Part shown: piece by piece, positions 964-40,989 of the stretch
How the letters are laid out: every line of letters begins with the position of its first letter
Numbering within the stretch: position 1 is the first letter of the stretch
Assembly: GCA_037576195.1 (NCBI GenBank)
Contig: CM075104.1
Location: 16,446,211-16,510,210 of the forward strand
Reading direction: 5' to 3'
Length of the DNA: 64,000 nucleotides
Source: Phytoseiulus persimilis
Taxonomy: Eukaryota; Arthropoda; Arachnida; Mesostigmata; Phytoseiidae
Made by a program: the position numbers and the translations under genes
Notes under the pieces: generated by a model
What the model saw: only the letters and a program-made list of their open reading frames with translations
Database searches by the model: none
What the model was told of the DNA's origin: nothing

Positions 964-2347
964 AGACGTTTCGGCCACGGGCATTCTTTGCCGGACAATT
1001 CGGCCCCAGGAGTTCCCGGTCCTAGCATGCCGTCCACGGACATTTCGGCACCTAACGGCGACGCTCATCGGTGCATGAGACTATGCATGGTGCTCATGTG
1101 TATAGAGACTTTTCATTGTTGTTGGGATTTCATGCTTCAACCTGGGTACGCGTTTTCCCGAAAACGAGGCTTTGCAACCGTAGACCCACGCCGCAGTGCA
1201 GAGGACCATCGCGACCGTTCAAACATACGGGCCGCTACAGAGGACGTATCTCAGCGAGCTCAAAGTGTTCGTGGGTCTTATGACATGTCTCCAGAGAGCG
1301 ACATCCGGTGAAGATACGGTTTCAAACAAGGCGAAAATGAGAAATCCGAGCTCCGGAAATATCACAACACGTCGATGTGACGAACGAAAAGTGAACATTC
1401 GATCCCTTTCGTCGACTGTTTCTCGTTCGTCCTCAATAGTTGTGTTGGGAATGGCGGCGAAGCGAGCAATCGGTGACGGGATTCGGAGGTTCCAGCGTGA
1501 ATGGACAGAGAAGTTTTCGTCGAGCTGGGAGGAAAACCAACGTGTTCGATCTGTGAGAAAACCCTGTCCGTCTTCGAGGAGTACAACCTGCGACGGCACT
1601 ACGAAAGCGCCCATCAAGGTGAGGAGACGCTCTCCGGGTGGGGAAGATCGTAGCAAATGTCGAATCTCTGCTTCCATGGAAGCGATTCGGCGATTTTGAG
1701 CGCTCAAGATGTGCAGAGCCCTACTCGAACACTGTGGTCCACTCGCGGCCCGCCAGACGCGCGTTGCGGATAAATGATGATCTTAATGAACATCAGCTGG
1801 TATCCGAAGATCGCGAGTGAGTTCAGGGCCGAGATGACCAAGGCCGAAAAGTCTCGGCCGGAATCTCCAGGGCAGAAATGTCATGTACCGCTGACTTGTT
1901 GCTCCGACCCAGGTGGTCGTAGGATCTTGTTTTCCGTTGGAGGCTATTGCCACATCACAGCTCAGATTGAACATTGTGCATCACCGAACCTGGACGTCAT
2001 TCATATTTTCTCCCAATCCAATCCGAAGGGTAATGGTATTCTCCGAAAGGAATGATATGGGAAATAGGGCGATTCCGACAATGGCACCAAAATCACACCA
2101 GAATCGAGCTCAAGGCAACCATGAACGACTTGTAGACACACGAAGTTTCAATCAAGGAAGTCGCCACTGAGCGAAGTGTATCGTACACACCTCCTTCGAG
2201 GGTTTGATTGCTTCCGAAAGGAGGATTGCGTTTGGTGTTTGTTGGGAGCATCCGGAGCCGAGAGGTCTGGGGCCGAGAAGTCTCGGGCCGAGAAGTCTCA
2301 GGGCCGAAAAGTCTTGGGCCGAAATGTATGGAACCGGAATGTATGGT
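964..2347. repeat. inverted arrays of 15 bp tandem units (candidate foldback element A)
   Basis: At 964-1,055 about six 15 bp units contain TTCGGC or a variant. At 1,829-1,888 and again at 2,258-2,347 four to six 15 bp units contain the reverse complement, as in GCCGAGAAGTCTCGG. The left array is therefore inverted relative to the two right arrays, as in foldback transposons. Between them lies a hAT-type zinc-finger fragment. Ends and target-site duplication are not resolved. Confidence 0.5.
1440..1650 (+). pseudogene. hAT-type transposase N-terminal zinc-finger fragment
   Basis: Translation gives RRFQREWTEK in one frame. One frame over it continues as GGKPTCSICEKTLSVFEEYN followed by LRRHYESAHQG. 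This is the CxxC...HxxxxxH finger found at the N terminus of zinc-finger hAT transposases and their domesticated relatives (ZBED5, GTF2IRD2-like proteins). The frame change between EWTEK and VFVELGG, and a stop soon after the finger, mark a dead copy. No catalytic domain follows. Confidence 0.5.
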
Positions 2348-6372: not shown

Positions 6373-7902
6373 CTATTGTGACAGCGAAACTTGATTGGTC
6401 TCCAATTTCTCCGCGAAGTTCATGAGTTTCTGGTTGATTCTTCGATATCGCTGTGGTGATCGAGGTGGGGGCCCTCCCTGCCGCAGGAAAAGCATGTCAT
6501 TTTTGAACCGTTGCTCTTGCTGTTGAAGATGTTTCACCAAATCGAAGACGTTCGGATGAGCCCTCCCAACCGCCGTATTCAGAGCTTGATGCCATCCTTC
6601 GATGTAGTTCGTGGTGCGGGCGCCGTCATTCCGGTAATGATTCCACAGCTCTCGCGGGAACACGGTCGCGTTTTCTAACCAGGTAGCGACGAAATACTCT
6701 TTGAAAGTTTCCAAACCCTGGTATGCAGGATGGTCGGGTCCGGGAGAGTCTGCGTTTATCTCCACCCATGCATCGTCAATTGCATGCAAGGGAACGAATG
6801 CCAGCGCTCCGATGGATCGAACAGTGAACTTGACTTCTGGTTTCTTGTAGTGGGTGCTTAGGCCGATTTCTTGGACTTTTCGCCAGAGGCATTGACCAAA
6901 ATGGAAGTTACAGCCTTTCATTTGTGACGCCGGGAAGAGTTCTCTGATCGCCTTGAGCGCTGCTTGTTCGAAATCGAGCAGGAACGTTCGTGAGCGAAAC
7001 AGCAAGCCGATAGATGACGCGTACTTACGGAGCAGGACAAACATCCGGCAGTAGGTTTCCTTCCGTTTATCGGGGAGCAAGAAGTATACCAGTGGTATCA
7101 TCTCACCTCTATAGAAGGCACGAAGAGTGTAGAGTTGAGTAAAAACACTCGGAACCACCCGAAAAGTACCATCCGAATATACAATGGGAGCGTTGCAGAG
7201 AGCCATCATCATCTCTTCCGTCGAAAACCCCAGAACCCGATTATCTTCCCCATCGTTGATTATCAGGAACAGTCGGCCATCGAGCGTCTTGGTGTAAGAG
7301 TCTCCCAGCACGATAGTTGCCAACGAAGTTGGCAGAGGAGGTCTCACTTGTCCACGAGCTCGATGTAGGATGGTGGAAGTGGAGTCAAATGTCGGAAACG
7401 ATGCACCGATCTCTTCATCCACGTGATCGGCTCGCAGCTCATCGATACGAGAAGCTCTGAGCTCATTGTACACCTGTTGCGCGGTCTTCTGGCTTTCGAC
7501 TGTCATTCGCTCTTTCATCTCGTTCAAAGTTGTCCTCTTTATGTACTCCTCACTCGCGGGCTCGTGGCTGTGCGTTCCACTCAGTCCCTGACAGGCGGGT
7601 ACAGTTCCCTTCAGAAATCAAAATACATTGTAGAAGGATGGTCGTTGGATGGGTACGCAGATACACTGTATAAGATATAATTTACACACGATCACCGGTC
7701 TGTAGCTATTGAAACGGAGGAACAAGACATGTCAGAGATATTCTACCTTTGTGAGTGTCGCTCTCGCACGACAGTTTTTCTTGGACTTCTGCGTGCATCG
7801 GCAGTAGATGCTGGTTTCTTTCTCCCCGTCAACTTCATACAAGTAGTGGTCGATGTAGTACATCGGTTTTCCCTCCGTTGAGAGCACTACTTTTACCTCC
7901 AT
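6373..7902 (-). CDS. MULE (Mutator-like) transposase with FLYWCH zinc finger, copy 1
   Basis: Two exons read leftwards: 7,902-7,747 (52 codons) and 7,608-6,373. They join in phase through a 138 bp intron (GTAGAA...AG) to give about 463 residues. The first exon and the start of the second form a FLYWCH finger (YCRCTQKSKKNCRARATL, then HSH about 30 residues later). The catalytic core shows the MULE DDE pattern: YSDGTF, LLDFEQAALKA with GCNFHFGQC behind it, and TNYIEGWHQALN. No stop or frameshift interrupts it, so it could encode an active cut-and-paste transposase. Terminal repeats were not found around it. It is clearly diverged from the copy at 14,584-16,145, so two separate MULE lineages are present. 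Confidence 0.85.
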
Positions 7903-12482: not shown

Positions 12483-12619
12483 TTCCGTAGTACGGAGTAC
12501 TGCAATTGAATTTCCGTACCGGCTCAGTACGGCAATTCAATTTCCGTACCGGGGCGGCGAAAATGAATTTCCGTACCAGGAAGTACGGAAATTGAATTGC
12601 CGTACTCCGTACTACGGAA
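12483..12619. repeat. 137 bp palindromic element with 37 bp terminal inverted repeats
   Basis: Left arm 12,483-12,519 starts TTCCGTAGTACGGAGTAC. Right arm 12,583-12,619 is its reverse complement with about two mismatches. The 63 bp centre holds two more copies of GAATTTCCGTACC. The whole could fold into a near-perfect hairpin. It looks like a tiny MITE or solo foldback element. No target-site duplication is obvious. Confidence 0.75.
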
Positions 12620-13382
12620 AGTGATACGTTGTATCAATTGGCCGAATGAGAAGATACTTTTAGAAATTGTGCTGCTGCATTGAAGAGGGACTCCAGTCAG
12701 CCCAAGGTCGACTGCTCTTTCTATCATCCGATGAGAAACACCTTCGGGAATGTGGAGATCTGCTGTGTGCAGGGGAAACAAAAGTGGGCCGACAAGTGGA
12801 CCTTGGTTCACTCCAGAAGGGGCTGGCTGCCAGTGAGAAGTGCACTCATCAAAACTGCCGCGAAATCGGCAATCAGAGAGGAAACTCGCAAACCAGCGTC
12901 ATAGCGAAGAGGAGAGACCGAAGGCACCTTAGGGAGCTGCGAGACGAGAAGGCGTAGATTAGCCAAGTCGGACGCTGCATGAAAATCAATAGGAATAACA
13001 TCAGTCCTCGCAGACCTCTCGTTGGTAGCTGTCAGCCGTTCTTGAGAGATTCTGCCAACTGGAGGGCTGTTCATCGCCTGGGGAACCAAAGTGATAACGG
13101 TCCAGCAGACGTTGTCATGGTGGCTAATGATACGATTCGCAAGGATTCTGCGATGCGATTCACAGCATCAATCGTTCTTGGCGAAGAAGTGCCGAAGAGA
13201 TTCGGTGCATTCTGAGTTGCGGTGGGACTCCGTTGCGACCTTGTATTGAACTGCAAACGGACCAAAGCTTTGCTGTAGAGACAACCCTCTCGAACGGAAT
13301 CTGTATAAGTTTCGGGTCTCCATGCTTCTTGCGAATCGATTGTAGCGTGAAGTCTCCGACATTTGGATCAGGATCAGACGAA
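12620..13382. other. unclassified sequence between repeats
   Basis: Several 60-100 codon frames overlap on both strands (the longest on - at 12,808-13,089) with no recognisable domain. Probably repeat-derived. Confidence 0.3.
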
Positions 13383-14190: not shown

Positions 14191-14275
14191 AATTGGGCGC
14201 CGGCGTCGATTGGGCGCTGGCGTCAATTGGGCTCCGCCGTCAGTTGGGCGCCAGCGTCAATTGGGCCCCAGCGCC
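14191..14275 (+). repeat. 17 bp tandem array, left arm (5 units)
   Basis: Units start at 14,191, 14,208, 14,225, 14,242 and 14,259. Each is 17 bp with the core (A/G)(A/G)TTGGGC and differs from the next at one to four positions. Confidence 0.85.
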
Positions 14276-14583
14276 GGGTCGTCCCTGTATGCTTTCATCA
14301 TACCCACAATACACTCAGCTGCGTCCGCGGAGAGCCCACTCATACAATGTGGGAGCGTGTCCCTCCAGGTCCTTGAAGGAACGATCTCTCGGCTTCGTCA
14401 AACATGGGAATTCGCTGAAAATGAGACGATTGTTTCCGCTGGCTGGAGGGTTCCTCGGACGGAATGGACTTTTCATCGGGAGGGCGCGATTGGAGAGAAA
14501 ACGCCCGTTGAGCATGGATTCGAATATACTTTTATTGTGTATATTATGGGTCGAACTCCATTCCCGGCAGGGATGGCTGCTCT

Positions 14584-16145
14584 TCACAGATTCATCTCGT
14601 AGTTATGAGCGACTCCGCGGAGTGTTTCGAACAAAGTTCGAGATTCTAGATCTGTGATTACGTTCATGATGCGACGATCGATTTCCAGGTAACGGTTCCG
14701 TTTTCTCTGAGAAGCGTTTCCGGCCACGTATCGCTCCAAGTCCGCGTCTTTGCTTTGTTGAACGCACTTTATGCCTTTTATGAACTTGATGAGGAGAAGG
14801 CCGGGATGGCGGACTGCGAATTGGCGCTGGAGGCTTCTGTGCGCAGCTTCCACATAGTTGTTCGTTCGTGAGTCCCCTTGAAGGGTCCTTTCGTAAACGG
14901 TCCACGTGAACACAGGGAACATGGCTGCTCGGCGGCTCGGATTTCCGTTGATGTCTATTTGAAGTCGACCCATGTAGAAATCTTCAAAGTACCCCAAGAC
15001 CGGCTGCAGTTCGAGCGGAAGATGAGATCGCAACTCCCTCAAACCGTCTTCAAGATGTTCTGGTGGGAGGAACGCCATGGCAGACATCATTTTCCCATTG
15101 AGAGCGAAGTCCGGTTCGTTCCTGTATCTCTGGCTCAACCCACATGGTGCAACTTTCTTCTTCATATTTTGCACTAGATGGAAAAAGCATCCGTGCAGTT
15201 CTGCTCCAGGGAAGTAGGCAGCGAATGCGTTCCGCAACCCTTGTTCGAAGTCCATCGATATTGCTCCTTCATTGAGGTCGGGCCATCCCAAGGTCAACAT
15301 ATCCAACATCTGAGCGGAAGAGGAAAACAAACTTCCTTGAAATCGTTGATACCCGAGTTGCCCTCATGATACAGCGGCAACGAGCTGTTATCTTCCAGGA
15401 TATTATACGAAATCTATGAGTTATTTACCTTGTTGTAGCTTCGCTCTTCCTTGTTTGGCATAAGCACATAACACAGGGGAGTGACTACTCCAGGGCGTTC
15501 CGCGAGGATCACGAAAATTTGCGCGAATAACTGCGGAGCCAACGAGAAGGTCCCATCAACATAGATCCTCCTTACTCGACCGACCCACGATCTCGCGGAC
15601 TCTCTTCCAAAGATGAGTATTCGATGAGGATCGTCGGATCCAGAATCCGCTAGCAGGAAGTTTTCGACTTCACCCGGAGTGCTTTCGTACATACGGAAAG
15701 ACTCGGGAATATCGATGTCGGCCAGTCTTGTGAAGTGAGTCGATGGAATCCCTACTCGGTTGCGCGTCCTCTGTACTATCCGTGCTAAACACTTGTTCGT
15801 GCCCGTGGATCCTTGCGCAGGGAGGGAGGATTGCGTGCGAACCTTGTTTATGATCTGATGGGGTTGCTCCACCGTCTCGGCGGCTCGTCGTTTCAGCGCG
15901 GTCTTCTTCCGCTGTACTTCGATTGCGGCGGCGTTGGGATTGTCGCTGTGTTCACCCACTGCGCGAAGTTCACCTGTTATCAGGTTCTTGTGAAGACGAG
16001 CTTTGCATTTGAAGGCTGGGTTATTCTTCAAGTAACAGCGCCAAAATTCGGTGTTGGAGTCCTTGCTCTTCTTGTCATACACGTAAAGATGCCCTTCATG
16101 GGCAGTCTTCAGCTTATTGCGCTTGGACAATATTTCACCTTCCAT
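14584..16145 (-). CDS. MULE (Mutator-like) transposase with FLYWCH zinc finger, copy 2
   Basis: Exon 1 16,145-15,429 (239 codons, ATG at 16,145) joins exon 2 15,309-14,584 in phase 0 to give 480 residues. The 119 bp intron has a GTAAAT donor and a strong pyrimidine tract before CAG. An N-terminal FLYWCH finger (HEGHLYVYDKK, WRCYLKN, CKARLH) precedes the DDE core: YVDGTFSLAP, SMDFEQGLRNAF with GCFFHLVQN, and NNYVEAAHRSLQ. There is no interruption. About 0.8 kb separates the start from the right array, so the promoter lies within the element. It is the likely driver of the 14,191-17,038 transposon, and the fragment at 2,875-3,200 is a relative. Confidence 0.85.
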
Positions 16146-16919
16146 CGAACAATAAACAAAGACACAAGAGTTCAGAGATACTAGTTGTGGAAGTTTTTTC
16201 AGAGCGTCAGTTTGATTTCGGTGTGCAGTTCCGCCGTATGGAGTTTGGAATGAAATTTGAATTTCGCATGAGTTCTCGATGGAGATAACGACTGAGGAAA
16301 GGGTACGGCAGTTCAAATATGAGAACTTTTCCGATAGGACATCAGGGCTCCGAGAACAATGGCCTGAGTCCAATGAGTAATGCGGATTAGTATTGCTTTA
16401 ACACGAAGAGACATCAACAATGCAGGAAATACAGATTTTCCAATTTCGATGTTTCTCCCAGACACTGAGAGCGTTGCACACTCTCCCAAGTTCTCACCCC
16501 CTGGCTCATGACGGTTCCTTGGAGCATGACCTCCGAGCACTGAGCGCTTCGTCCGCTCAATACGGGAACCATGGAGATGATTTCCATACAATTTCACTCA
16601 TTGATTGCAGTGTACGATTATTTTCCGCTTTCGATGCGTTGATGATGACGAAATCTAGATTTTTGCTAGTCTATCGGGTTTCATTGAACGAGCCCAGCCG
16701 CTCAGCGCTCAGCTCAGCGAATTATGTCCCTCCCGTGGATATTCTTGTACATTCATCAAAATCAAACGCGATGAATCGTATTGCCAGGGCCACTATATTC
16801 CCAAGCTCGAGTCCACCTTCGAGTTGGTCTAGCTTTTTTTTTACCACGGGCTCGCAATGTGGGGCAGAGCCTGGGACCACAGAGATGTCAACGATCTCTC
16901 ACAAGCTGTGGGAGCCAGC

Positions 16920-17038
16920 GCCCAATCGACGCCGGAGCCCAATCGACGCCAGCGCCCAATTGACGCCGGAGCCCAATCGACGCCAGCGCCCAATCGACGC
17001 CAGCGCCCAATCGACTCCGGCGCCCAAATGACGCGCTC
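16920..17038 (-). repeat. 17 bp tandem array, right arm (7 units)
   Basis: Units start at 16,920, 16,937, 16,954, 16,971, 16,988, 17,005 and 17,022. They read GCCCAATCGACGCCAGC with few changes and are the reverse complement of the left-arm units. Confidence 0.85.
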
Positions 17039-17599
17039 CGCGTGGAGTTTACCATGGAGTTGCTCCCTCGTGCGAAGAGTCGCCAACAGTGGCAAAACAA
17101 GGCAGTTCGGGTAGGTGAGTAGATCATGCACTGCCTTAGGCTCGTTTCGCCGTTCGCGTTCGTCCCAAAGAACCATTCCCGTGACAGCTTTCGCTCACAT
17201 CCCTTACTGGCATCACTGTGACGCATCGCGCCCTCGGAAGCGGAGTCCAGATGCCGCAAAGCCGAGCGCCCGCGGTTCACGAGAAAAAATCGGAGTGCTT
17301 CGTCGACGTTTCCAGGCCAATGGCTGATATCTCTCAGAGGTGAGAACGTTTCTCCGGAATCGTAGCACTTTGGGTCGTTAGAGTCTGAGGACTGTTCGGA
17401 ACTACCTGGTCTCCCAGACTGATCCCTGCGGTGATCTGTTGCAACGTTTACTGGAGCACTCGACTGGTCTTGAGCAGGGCTTTCATGTTCTCCCTCGCCA
17501 GCTCCAGTGGGACCCTCCTCTGAAGTCACTTTTAGCTGTAGATACTCCAGAAAGCTTCCTTCCTGCTCCGCCAATCCCGCTTATCACTGGAACTCGCTC

Positions 17600-37218: not shown

Positions 37219-40200
37219 ATGGCTCTCTGCGAGGAGCCCGAGCTCAAGACGTTGATCACTGCGCCGAAGCCTCTATCCGTAGGGCTCGAAGTCGACTCCG
37301 GGAGCGTCGCTCCAAGACAGCGTCCTCTCAGGACGAAATTCAGACTTCTTGCGAAACTTTCCACGAGGAAGTCTCCAAGCACGGTCCATCATGTCGTTGA
37401 TGGAATGTTCCTGGGAGGGACCACGGGTACGTGAGTATCATGATCAGAGTGAGAGACTCTATAACTGATTTGGGCCACTCCCAATTACATTATTTGTGAG
37501 TCAGTTGAGGAATATGTGTGACATGCAAGCAAATGATACATTTTGAGGAAGGGTATTTTCGTGGTTGACCTCCGTACTTCTCACACATAACTTGCATGTT
37601 TAGTTGAGTCGGTCAAACCCGTCAATGCATGAAGTCTTTGGCCCTCATCATATTGCGTGACCTTCTCAGCCACCTCCAAGTTTTCCAACAGCTCTCCAGG
37701 GCTCGTTGGTCTTGTCTGCCTTTTTTAAATTGCATGAGTCGCTACAGGTCTAGATCGACTCATCCGTACGTACGACAATTGGATCCGATTCGCGATCTGG
37801 CTCGCGACATATCTTTTCCTGTCAGCTTGCTTGGGGTACTGCGTTTGCTGCGTACTCGCCAAGTATTTCAGGTGAGTGATTAACTTCGAAAATGTCTCCT
37901 CTCCGTGAGAGAGCGCGGAAACTCTTCGCAGATCTGAGGTCATCGGGATTTCCAGGTACGGCACAGCTATCTCCACTGACACCTTGATATCCAGAACTTT
38001 GGAGTTCCCGGCTGTCACAATCTGTAACTTGAACTATCTACGCAAGAGCAGCTTCTGTCGCGATGAGGGAATCTTCTGGGCGTTCCGGGATCGGATCTGC
38101 ACTCATGTCGACCAGGTGAGGAACGCTCGTTTGGTGGACTTCCATGTAATGCTCGGTCGCCGATCGCTTCACAAGGAAATGGACACAGGCGTTATTTCGG
38201 AACCATTTCGATCTTCGCAGACAAGACAGGATGTTCTCCTGATGCTGTCGGTCAACTCTGGAATCATGAATAAGACACTAGAGCCGGAATCTCATGATCG
38301 GCTCCCAGACCCAGTGATACGACACACGATTCACTGGAGCTCAGTCATCAAATTCTGCAACCTCGCACGGAACAACTGCTTGAGGTATTCCATAATCATA
38401 TACTGATTCGATGTCGACCACCTCGCGTCATCTTTGACACAGAGTCAACGAGAACAGTATGCGGAACGGTCTTTCAGGCCGGATTTGATCACGATGAGAC
38501 CGTCATCGAACCCCGAGTACGGCATGTGCTTCACTTTGTTTGGGAGAGAACTCCGTCGGAATCTCTCGGGGGTCGAGCGAGAGGAAATTTTGGAAATCAC
38601 GGGCCCCACCGACCCTTCAGGAGGACTGCATTTAGTGTTGGATCTGAACGAGGACGAGTATTTACCCTTTCAAGTTGAGAAAGGGTTCATCCTCATGGTG
38701 CACAGCATCGTTGATGCCGCTGATGTATCCCGGTCTGGAGTTTTTGTACCGGCAGATCGGAGGACATACGTTGCGATTCAAAAGGTTCGAGTTCGATCGG
38801 TTAAACTGATAGGATTGGAGGGGCATCCGCGTTTCCGGAACTTACTCTTCCTACGTTGATGCAGGAAGTCGTGCGCTTGTTGGAAGCTCCATACGATACC
38901 GGATGTCAACCTGGGAAGAAATGGCCACAAGATATCGTCGACCTGAGTCCTCAACTAGCGAACCATCTGAAGGGGCAACGCTACAGCGCCGTGGTAATCG
39001 CATGACTCCAGTTTCGCCTCGTTGTTACAGCGGATTGGCGGCACAAGTCCCCCTTATCCCCTAATGAGAAGTCCCCCTCTTGCCCCTAACCTCTATTGCA
39101 GGTCTGCGAATTCGTCTGTCGTGCTGTCAACGTCATCGACGTGTGCGACTGCGAGGAAAGACGCGGTTTCGACTATGCTTTGGCTTGTGTCGAAAGATTG
39201 TCCCGTGAGTATCGCGATCCTCTCTTATATTCGAGCCTCGCGATTGCCTTCGTTTCTTCTCCGAGCGACTTCGCGGCTAAGAATCTCGCCTCGGAGACCC
39301 GGGATTTTGCTACACATTCTCTCCGTTGAGGAGTTTCTCGCGGCAAGACTCTTAACAACGGAGCGTCTCGGAGCAAAGATTTAGTGGACGAAAATTCTTG
39401 CGGCAAAGTTCCGTGAGCATGATTTTCATCATCCTGTTGAAGGGCCAGGACACATAACAAACTTCACCTGTAAGGATGAGTTCACCAAGGCGCCCCTAGA
39501 TACGGCGAGAAAATATGACCGCCCCATAAGGTGTTTCTGTCCTCCAAGATGCAAGTCAGTACACGGTTCCCACTCGATAGCGATGGGTGTGCTTGCCGAC
39601 CACGAAATTCAGAGTCTCCTGCAGCCTGTATTTTTCAGGGATACTCTATTCATGAAACAAGTGTCTTACACTCATCTCAGGACTGAAACGGTATTCGCTG
39701 GGAAGAAATCTTCCCCATCAGCAATCTGAGCCAAAAGTGAAGTTCGATGACGGTTGCTAGACGTGGGCATCATAATCACTGGGTTGGTTCATTTCAGATC
39801 TACAACAACGCGCAGCAGCGCCGCAGAAAGTAAGTCCACTCACTTTCTCACAGATTTTCTCAATTGAAGAGATCTCTGTCGCAGGTCCAGGAGTATCCTG
39901 AATAGTCAGAGGGTTTCCGGCATGGGAATCGACTCCGCCCGATTTGAGCGGAAGCCCGATTCGGGCGAAGACCCGGTTCGAGCGGAAGCCAACAGCGGCT
40001 GTGGTACTGTGGCTCGCGCTCGAGTTGGGGTTCGGCACCTCTAAGTGGCGATCATGACTGGAGGAGAGCTGCAGCCCTCGTTTCTTGAGGCTCTCGTGGA
40101 CGAAATGAAGAATCAGAATGCGGTGCAATCGCGCCTATCTGCTCTTCGTTCGGTGGAAACGCTGCTCCCGGAATCGAAAAAACCTTATTGCTCTCTGAGC

Positions 40201-40989
40201 ACACTTGTTCGTGGGAGTTCGGGACACCGATCGCTACTTTTTGGATTTGCGCCTCGCCGAAGAGCTGGCTATGGACGCCGCTCGCTACGCTCGCGCGGCA
40301 CTCCGATTCTCGCTGGTGTATGAGCCCTTGACGGCGGAGACGTTAAGAAGGATAGTTGTCAACGATGAGCGGAGGTTGCCCTCTAGTCGAGTCCACGGAG
40401 CTCAGCGGCATACTTGTTCCGCACTCCAGATCAACGCGCGCATTCCTGCCTAGCTCTGGATGGAACCCATACATTCGAAAGGAAAGGTGAAATATGTTCG
40501 AACCACACCAGCGTCTCCCGCGCCGCTGCTGTCTGCTCAAATCGGGCCTTCGCTCGAATTGGGCGTTCGGTCACATAGTGCTTTCGCTCAAATTGGGCCT
40601 TCGGTCAAATCGTGCCTTCGCTCGAATTGTGCCTCCGCTCAAATGCAGCAACACCATGGCAATCATCCGCAAGAATGTTAATCTTCTGTTTCCAGATACG
40701 CAGAGGTATTCATATACTTCAAGGATATAAGGGAGGAGATTCTGTTCGTTACGCCCACCTATACAGTAAGTCCACTCCTGAGGAAATGCATGCATTCTGA
40801 TCGTGAGAAACGTTCCTGGATGGGATTCTACCGACTAACGAGCCTTCTTCGCAGTACGGTAAAATGATGAATGAAGTCGGCGGCTTTCTCGGCAGCTTCG
40901 TTGGTATGGCCCTTATCAGCATCTATGAGATCGCAGAGAGCTTCATCGTTACCTTCCTGCATCTAATCTCTTCCAAATCGCGTCTTTGA
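37219..40989 (+). CDS. DEG/ENaC-family sodium channel subunit 2
   Basis: Twelve in-phase exons give about 531 residues: 37,219-37,426; 37,748-37,871; 37,956-38,115; 38,221-38,384; 38,478-38,784; 38,865-38,993; 39,102-39,204; 39,443-39,554; 39,639-39,690; 39,798-39,829; 40,696-40,765; 40,855-40,989. Five exons (3, 6, 8, 9, 11) have exactly the length of those in the upstream paralogue, so the pair arose by tandem duplication. Seen: TM1 (AIWLATYLFLSACLGYC), FPAVTICNLNYL, NPEYGMCFTLFG, paired CxC motifs (VCEFVC, VCDCEE), YAEVFIYF and TM2 (EVGGFLGSFVGMALISIYE). HG before TM1 is TG, and GxS is GMA. The N terminus is much shorter than in gene 1. Intron 10 is long because it holds a repeat element. 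The exon 5 donor (GTTCGA) is weak. Confidence 0.83.
39939..40640. repeat. candidate foldback element in intron 10 of DEG/ENaC gene 2
   Basis: Three 17 bp units at 39,939-39,989 (CCGATTTGAGCGGAAGC type) face about six 17 bp units of opposite orientation at 40,536-40,640 (CTCAAATTGGGCCTTCG type). The roughly 550 bp between them include a frame with FLEALVDEMKNQ and, one frame off, DTDRYFLDLRLAEELAM, neither recognised. Unit length and the ATTGGGC-like core match the arms of the MULE at 14,191-17,038. The host intron is 866 bp, against about 80-380 bp for the others in this gene. Confidence 0.65.

What the first reader, a model, noticed from the sequence alone, without database searches (positions are those of the whole stretch)
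14191..17038. Intact MULE with Foldback-style ends made of 17 bp tandem units
An uninterrupted FLYWCH-MULE transposase gene is framed by five and seven 17 bp units in inverted orientation. Drosophila Foldback/NOF elements combine a MULE-type ORF with tandem-repeat inverted ends. Here the arms are very short (85 and 119 bp), which could be a minimal form of this architecture in another arthropod lineage.
Basis: partly seen in the sequence, partly recalled or inferred. Interest (0 to 1): 0.7.

Follow-up and report, generated by a model that had tools for sequence, protein, structure and literature searches.

The report
Jumping gene with tandem-repeat ends
This is a mobile DNA element of a known animal type whose two ends are built from a row of repeated 17-letter units; relatives in the same genome keep a similar core motif in those units, which hints that the rows are landing pads for the enzyme that moves the element.

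Summary
Window 14191-17040 is a FLYWCH-MULE transposon with five and seven 17-bp units at its ends, in inverted orientation. The family is multicopy: four further long copies and about twenty short relatives; all 12 short ones fetched keep at least one arm. Arm-specific caps lie outside the units. Of 17 copies examined, both caps were found in 11, and 10 of these have 8-10 bp target duplications; mismatched flanks gave 0 of 110.

The window copy is not fully intact: left cap and duplication are missing and its coding changes look unconstrained (dN/dS 0.92-1.01).

The architecture is described already in Muta1 of Aedes aegypti (PMC5225508) and Tm1 of root-knot nematodes (PMC3169594), closer matches than Drosophila Foldback/NOF. 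Verdict: new member of a known kind.

One result goes further. Seven MULE lineages here have units of 14-17 bp that share an 11-bp core, G[AT]C-N3-Y-N-G[GT]C, while linkers change. This fits repeated transposase-binding sites, a role that PMC3688188 (2013) calls untested for Foldback and Phantom elements.

The parts
14191..14275 (+). left arm: 5 tandem 17-bp units; the outer cap seen in other copies (CGGTGCACGTC) is missing here
16911..17029 (-). right arm: 7 tandem 17-bp units, inverted relative to the left arm
17030..17040 (-). right outer cap, CGGAGCGCGTC read from outside inward; right end of the element
15429..16145 (-). transposase exon 1: FLYWCH zinc finger match (16127-15984) and first half of the MULE domain
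15310..15428 (-). intron (GT-AG)
14584..15309 (-). transposase exon 2: second half of the MULE domain and the C-terminal region with the candidate catalytic Glu (E393; D197 and D259 are the candidate Asp residues)
   Evidence: assignment of the DDE residues is recalled motif knowledge, not from a call
14191..17040 (-). whole element as it stands in the window (left cap lost)

Best explanation
It is a cut-and-paste MULE of the Phantom/Muta/Tm1 kind with composite ends. Each end is a short arm-specific cap followed by 3-9 head-to-tail units. Shown here: the family has moved (8-10 bp target duplications at different sites; three long copies differing by 1-3 coding bases), short relatives keep the ends and some internal sequence, and unit numbers differ by single units between near-identical copies. 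Inferred: each unit carries one recognition site for the transposase (the 11-bp core, read from the end inward), the array recruits several transposase molecules to each end, the cap marks the cut, and unit number drifts by slippage or repair between adjacent identical units. The window copy is an end-damaged relative that still has an open gene.
For: FLYWCH and MULE domains. Both arms in all five long copies. 15 of 22 left caps paired with an inverted right cap, 634-3242 bp from end to end (one of the 15 uses a right cap with 3 mismatches). TSDs in 10 of 11 elements with both caps found, of 17 examined; null 0 of 110. All 12 fetched short copies keep at least one arm, 10 of 12 both. Core shared by seven lineages: leave-one-out P 0.00005-0.00225, with core spacings of 14, 15, 16 and 17, although synonymous sites between lineages A, B and C are saturated (not computed for D-G). 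In Galileo, a transposon with Foldback-like ends, repeats in the ends hold binding sites for the transposase's THAP domain (PMC3688188). Five natural Muta1 derivatives that differ in TIR length were all mobilised in yeast, none as well as the artificial element (PMC5225508).
Against: No binding data here. The FLYWCH finger seems to lack its last His (GEHSD; the C2H2 reading is recalled and from PMC3169594), so which part of the protein binds is uncertain. The within-lineage test that core positions vary less than linkers is only suggestive (P 0.10, 0.07, 0.06 for A, B, C). Trained on the other clade alone, the core match for lineage D is not significant (P 0.078). Arms of lineages E, F and G were assigned to their transposase by adjacency and seen on one side only. 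8 of 9 other unit types tested do not share this core; the one that does (P 0.005) is an arm of L064 whose partner arm has a different unit.
Confidence: 0.85

Rival explanations
1. A minimal Drosophila-type Foldback/NOF element: a MULE-type ORF between foldback arms, moved by a NOF-like protein.
For: Inverted arms of short tandem units around a MULE gene; [quoted passage not shown]
Against: FLYWCH plus MULE, caps, 8-9 bp TSDs and units of similar size match Muta1 and Tm1 more closely. No NOF sequence could be compared here.
Confidence: 0.07
2. The arrays are by-products of replication slippage in GC-rich ends with no role in transposition (the element is otherwise as in the best explanation).
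For: Unit number differs by single steps between adjacent identical units in near-identical copies; within-lineage constraint on the core is weak.
Against: Both arms keep the same unit in the same end-to-inside sense, and lineages whose transposases are 41-66% identical to the window's in exon 2 keep a common core although linkers and unit length changed.
Confidence: 0.2
3. A domesticated host gene flanked by chance repeats.
For: Open reading frame in the window copy.
Against: Near-identical copies at three other sites with different target duplications; dN/dS near 1 for the window copy.
Confidence: 0.02

Closest known systems
Muta1 and sister families, Aedes aegypti (PMC5225508; passages and section 8 read)
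   Same: FLYWCH + DDE transposase in two exons, 10-bp terminal motif followed by nine 12-bp tandem units with 3-4 bp spacers, 8-9 bp TSDs, many short derivatives with variable unit number; the authors call it a type2 Foldback TE and report short subterminal tandem repeats in 10 of 12 long-TIR families. PMC6446971 (passages) places Muta with Phantom
   Different: Here the unit is 17 bp and the caps differ between the two ends; the letters of the Muta1 unit were not seen, so the units could not be compared
Tm1, Meloidogyne (PMC3169594; abstract, passages and first part of the discussion read)
   Same: Phantom-like FLYWCH-MULE transposase lacking the last His, asymmetric outer motifs (one starts CGG), 13-15 bp tandem units in variable number, mostly 9-bp TSDs, MITE-like derivatives
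   Different: Different unit sequence, 7 exons, and an extra purine-rich inner motif
Drosophila Foldback (FB/NOF)
   Same: Inverted arms of short tandem units; link of some Foldback elements to Mutator reported in PMC3169594
   Different: FB arms are recalled to be far longer, with 10/20/31-bp units; NOF was not compared
Galileo, Drosophila (PMC3688188; abstract and discussion read)
   Same: Tandem repeats inside the ends, shown there to hold extra transposase-binding sites
   Different: P-superfamily THAP transposase, ends of more than 1 kb

Membership tests
Phantom/Muta-type MULE | N-terminal FLYWCH finger plus MULE transposase domain | tested here: met
   Pfam; last His of the finger seems absent, as reported for Tm1-A. 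PMC6446971 Table 1 lists none, FLYWCH or SWIM for Phantom
Phantom/Muta-type MULE | 8-10 bp target-site duplication | tested here: met
   10 of 11 elements with both caps, of 17 examined; null 0 of 110. Not found for the window copy itself
Phantom/Muta-type MULE | short terminal motif followed by subterminal tandem repeats (frequent, not universal) | tested here: met
Phantom/Muta-type MULE | transposase falls inside the Phantom clade | not testable with these tools
   reference transposases are not held; a viral-contig scan with the exon 2 alignment found no relative
Drosophila Foldback (FB/NOF) | inverted arms made of tandem units | tested here: met
Drosophila Foldback (FB/NOF) | arms of hundreds of bp to kb (recalled) | tested here: not met
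   arms 85 and 119 bp in the window; detected arms of the 17 copies examined have 3-9 units
Drosophila Foldback (FB/NOF) | NOF protein homology | not testable with these tools
   no NOF sequence held
Galileo / P superfamily | THAP domain transposase | tested here: not met
   Pfam finds FLYWCH and MULE only at E up to 0.01

The most novel reading that the evidence does not exclude
In this genome the tandem-unit ends of MULEs are modular. Seven transposase lineages keep one 11-bp recognition core (G[AT]C-N3-Y-N-G[GT]C, read from the end inward) while the linker between cores has changed between about 3 and 6 bp, giving units of 14, 15, 16 and 17 bp and, in one lineage, alternating 15 and 17. The array would then be a row of transposase sites whose spacing and number are free to evolve, and a second set of lineages uses other cores (for example CGTTTCCCCGAA at 14- and 15-bp spacing).
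Probability: 0.5. Interest if true: 0.55.

Novelty: new member of a known kind. Interest (0 to 1): 0.4.

Why it matters
The element itself is ordinary for its kind. Its value is comparative: one genome holds many MULE lineages with different tandem units, so conserved and free parts of the unit can be separated without experiments. [quoted passage not shown] the shared core names the bases to footprint. The 2026 arthropod MULE survey (PMC13359780; abstract and passages seen) suggests that long TIRs may offer several binding sites, but its main text does not use the words tandem, subterminal, FLYWCH or Phantom, so this layer of structure may be under-recorded in arthropods.

Tried and rejected
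A universal core for all MULE arms in the genome was considered and rejected: 8 of 9 unit types outside group 1 did not match the core. Relatives in viral contigs were sought and none was found. The idea that the array at 2257-2322 is an arm of the second MULE gene (6373-7617) was dropped: its units carry the group-1 core and resemble lineage F, while that MULE's closest copy (95%, L053) has 14-bp CCGTTTCCCCGAAA arms. Lineage B copies (c06, c07) have a second array 5' of the gene in the unexpected orientation; I could not define their right end. The two arms of L064 have different units. L024 overlaps L060, so its left array is the right arm of L060 and not its own (coordinates).

The survey count (50 of 60 loci with an array) is loose: it includes a 45-bp satellite and poorly periodic arrays. 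Counting by hand from that listing only arrays with lag identity of at least 0.6 gives 42 of 60; that drops L014, L015 and L017, whose arms are irregular or alternate. Loci are not all independent: L028/L029, L059/L070 and L024/L060 overlap, L055-L057 are near-identical, and L001 is the window copy. The 60 loci are only the best rows of two searches (139 and 126 rows). Window tiles: 4 of 17 have such an array, two of which hold this element.

Full report
What is there. The window carries a two-exon transposase gene on the minus strand (exon 1 16145-15429, intron 15428-15310, exon 2 15309-14584, 480 aa). Pfam gives FLYWCH (E 7.7e-8, a partial profile match) and MULE (E 1.1e-10, nearly the whole profile once the exons are joined). 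Candidate catalytic residues are D197, D259 and E393 (positions; the assignment rests on recalled motif knowledge). On the left are five 17-bp units (14191-14275), on the right seven (16911-17029) in inverted orientation, followed by an 11-bp cap ending at 17040.

The family in its genome. A search of the window's own genome (181 Mb, 127 contigs, unnamed) with exon 2 gave 139 matches (a lower bound), of which four besides the window are 90-95% identical over the full exon (c02-c05; c05 has one stop). Their arms hold 7-9 units on the left and 7-9 on the right. A two-unit pattern hits 74 + 78 times, control 0 + 0. A 290-bp subterminal probe found 30 matches, 25 of them strong (E 2.7e-43 or better): five long copies and twenty others. 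I fetched 12 of those twenty. All 12 keep at least one arm; in 10 of 12 the script found both, in L045 and L051 only one. L042, L044 and L046 have the same flanking letters at both ends and look like one insertion copied within something larger.

Ends and duplications. Two caps recur: CGGTGCACGTC at one end and CGGAGCGCGTC (or CGAAGCGCGTC) at the other. At up to two mismatches the genome has 22 left caps, 15 of them paired with an inverted right cap at a distance of 634-3242 bp (24 right caps were offered, 23 with up to two mismatches and one with three, and that one is used in a pair). Seven left caps and nine right caps stay unpaired, the window's right cap among them. Of 17 copies examined, both caps were found in 11, and 10 of these have an 8-10 bp duplication (six of 9, one of 10, three of 8; c05 needs an offset of one base); L045 has none. 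Mixing left and right flanks of different copies gave 0 of 110.

Recent movement and the state of the window copy. c02, c03 and c04 differ by 1-3 of 1431 coding bases and lie at different sites. The window copy differs from them by 25-27 bases with dN/dS 0.92-1.01, so it looks unconstrained although its frame is open. c02, c03 and c04 differ in their arms by single units next to identical neighbours, while the edge units stay nearly the same.

Other MULE lineages. I examined 60 MULE loci, the best 30 rows of each of two searches. A loose scan found a short-unit array in 50 of 60; a stricter count by hand from the same listing gives 42. The loci are not all independent (see Tried and rejected). 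Unit lengths are 14, 15, 16 and 17 bp, and 15 alternating with 17. By eye, further duplications were read for lineage C (c12 and c09, 9 bp; none for c08) and for L053, L059 (8 bp) and L060 (9 bp); none was recognised for L058 or L064.

A shared core. In seven lineages that I call group 1 (A-G) the unit can be written as an 11-bp core plus a linker. I saw this by eye and then tested it on unit consensuses. With the lineage left out of training, its unit matches the core better than its own shuffles at P 0.00005-0.00225 (7 of 7). Trained on the other clade only, P is 0.002-0.018 for six and 0.078 for D. Of 9 other unit types, 8 do not match; one arm of L064 does (P 0.005). Core positions vary less than linker positions within lineages A, B and C, but not significantly one by one (P 0.10, 0.07, 0.06). 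Synonymous sites between lineages A, B and C are saturated, so a kept core next to changed linkers points to selection there; for D-G only protein identity to the window copy is known (41-46%), and E, F and G arms were seen on one side only. In the window the exact pattern G[AT]C-N3-Y-N-GGC occurs 44 times on both strands: 4 in the left arm, 7 in the right arm with its cap, 4 in the remnant at 2257-2322, none in the second element at 39931-40654, the rest elsewhere.

Known relatives. Muta1 of Aedes aegypti and Tm1 of Meloidogyne have the same plan. Five natural Muta1 derivatives of different TIR length were all mobilised in yeast, none as well as an artificial one. The Galileo paper reports binding sites in the repeats of that element and says that for Foldback and Phantom elements this remains untested. 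Table 1 of PMC6446971 lists none, FLYWCH or SWIM and, where indicated, 8-10 bp TSDs for Phantom (passage). The original Phantom paper is not held. That I found no report of a conserved core across lineages rests on searches of an open-licence library; none was worded for such a core.

Verdict. The most interesting part is the conserved core with changing linkers.

Noticed in passing
window 39931-40654: A second short element with inverted 17-bp units (GGCCCAATTTGAGCGAA, read inward) and a near-perfect 10-bp duplication (CATGGGAATC/CATGGCAATC). A 22-bp pattern from its units (up to 3 mismatches) hits the genome 226 + 223 times (control 1 + 0), in the listed part often as inverted pairs; I saw no transposase with these arms among the 60 loci.
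   Followed up: partly
window 2257-2322: Isolated array of about 16-bp units with the group-1 core (GACTTCTCGGC and variants), perhaps a remnant arm of lineage F.
   Followed up: partly
window 6373-7617: A second MULE gene (414 aa, Pfam MULE E 1.5e-10, no FLYWCH found in this frame), 95% identical to L053 which has 14-bp-unit arms; no array was listed within 1.5 kb of the window copy (L052).
   Followed up: partly
L014, L015, L018 arms: Core spacing alternates 15 and 17 bp over most of up to 18 cores, a 32-bp double unit.
   Followed up: partly
c02, c03, c04 (C2:1308759, C4:11676047, C2:5460210): All three are exactly 2939 bp and hold 17 units in total, split 9+8, 9+8 and 8+9. May be coincidence.
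   Followed up: no
L012, L013, L022, L061: A 45-bp satellite-like repeat lies next to several MULE copies.
   Followed up: no
window 12496-12624: Tandem array of about 30 bp with inner inverted symmetry (GTACGGAAATTGAATTTCCGTAC-like).
   Followed up: no
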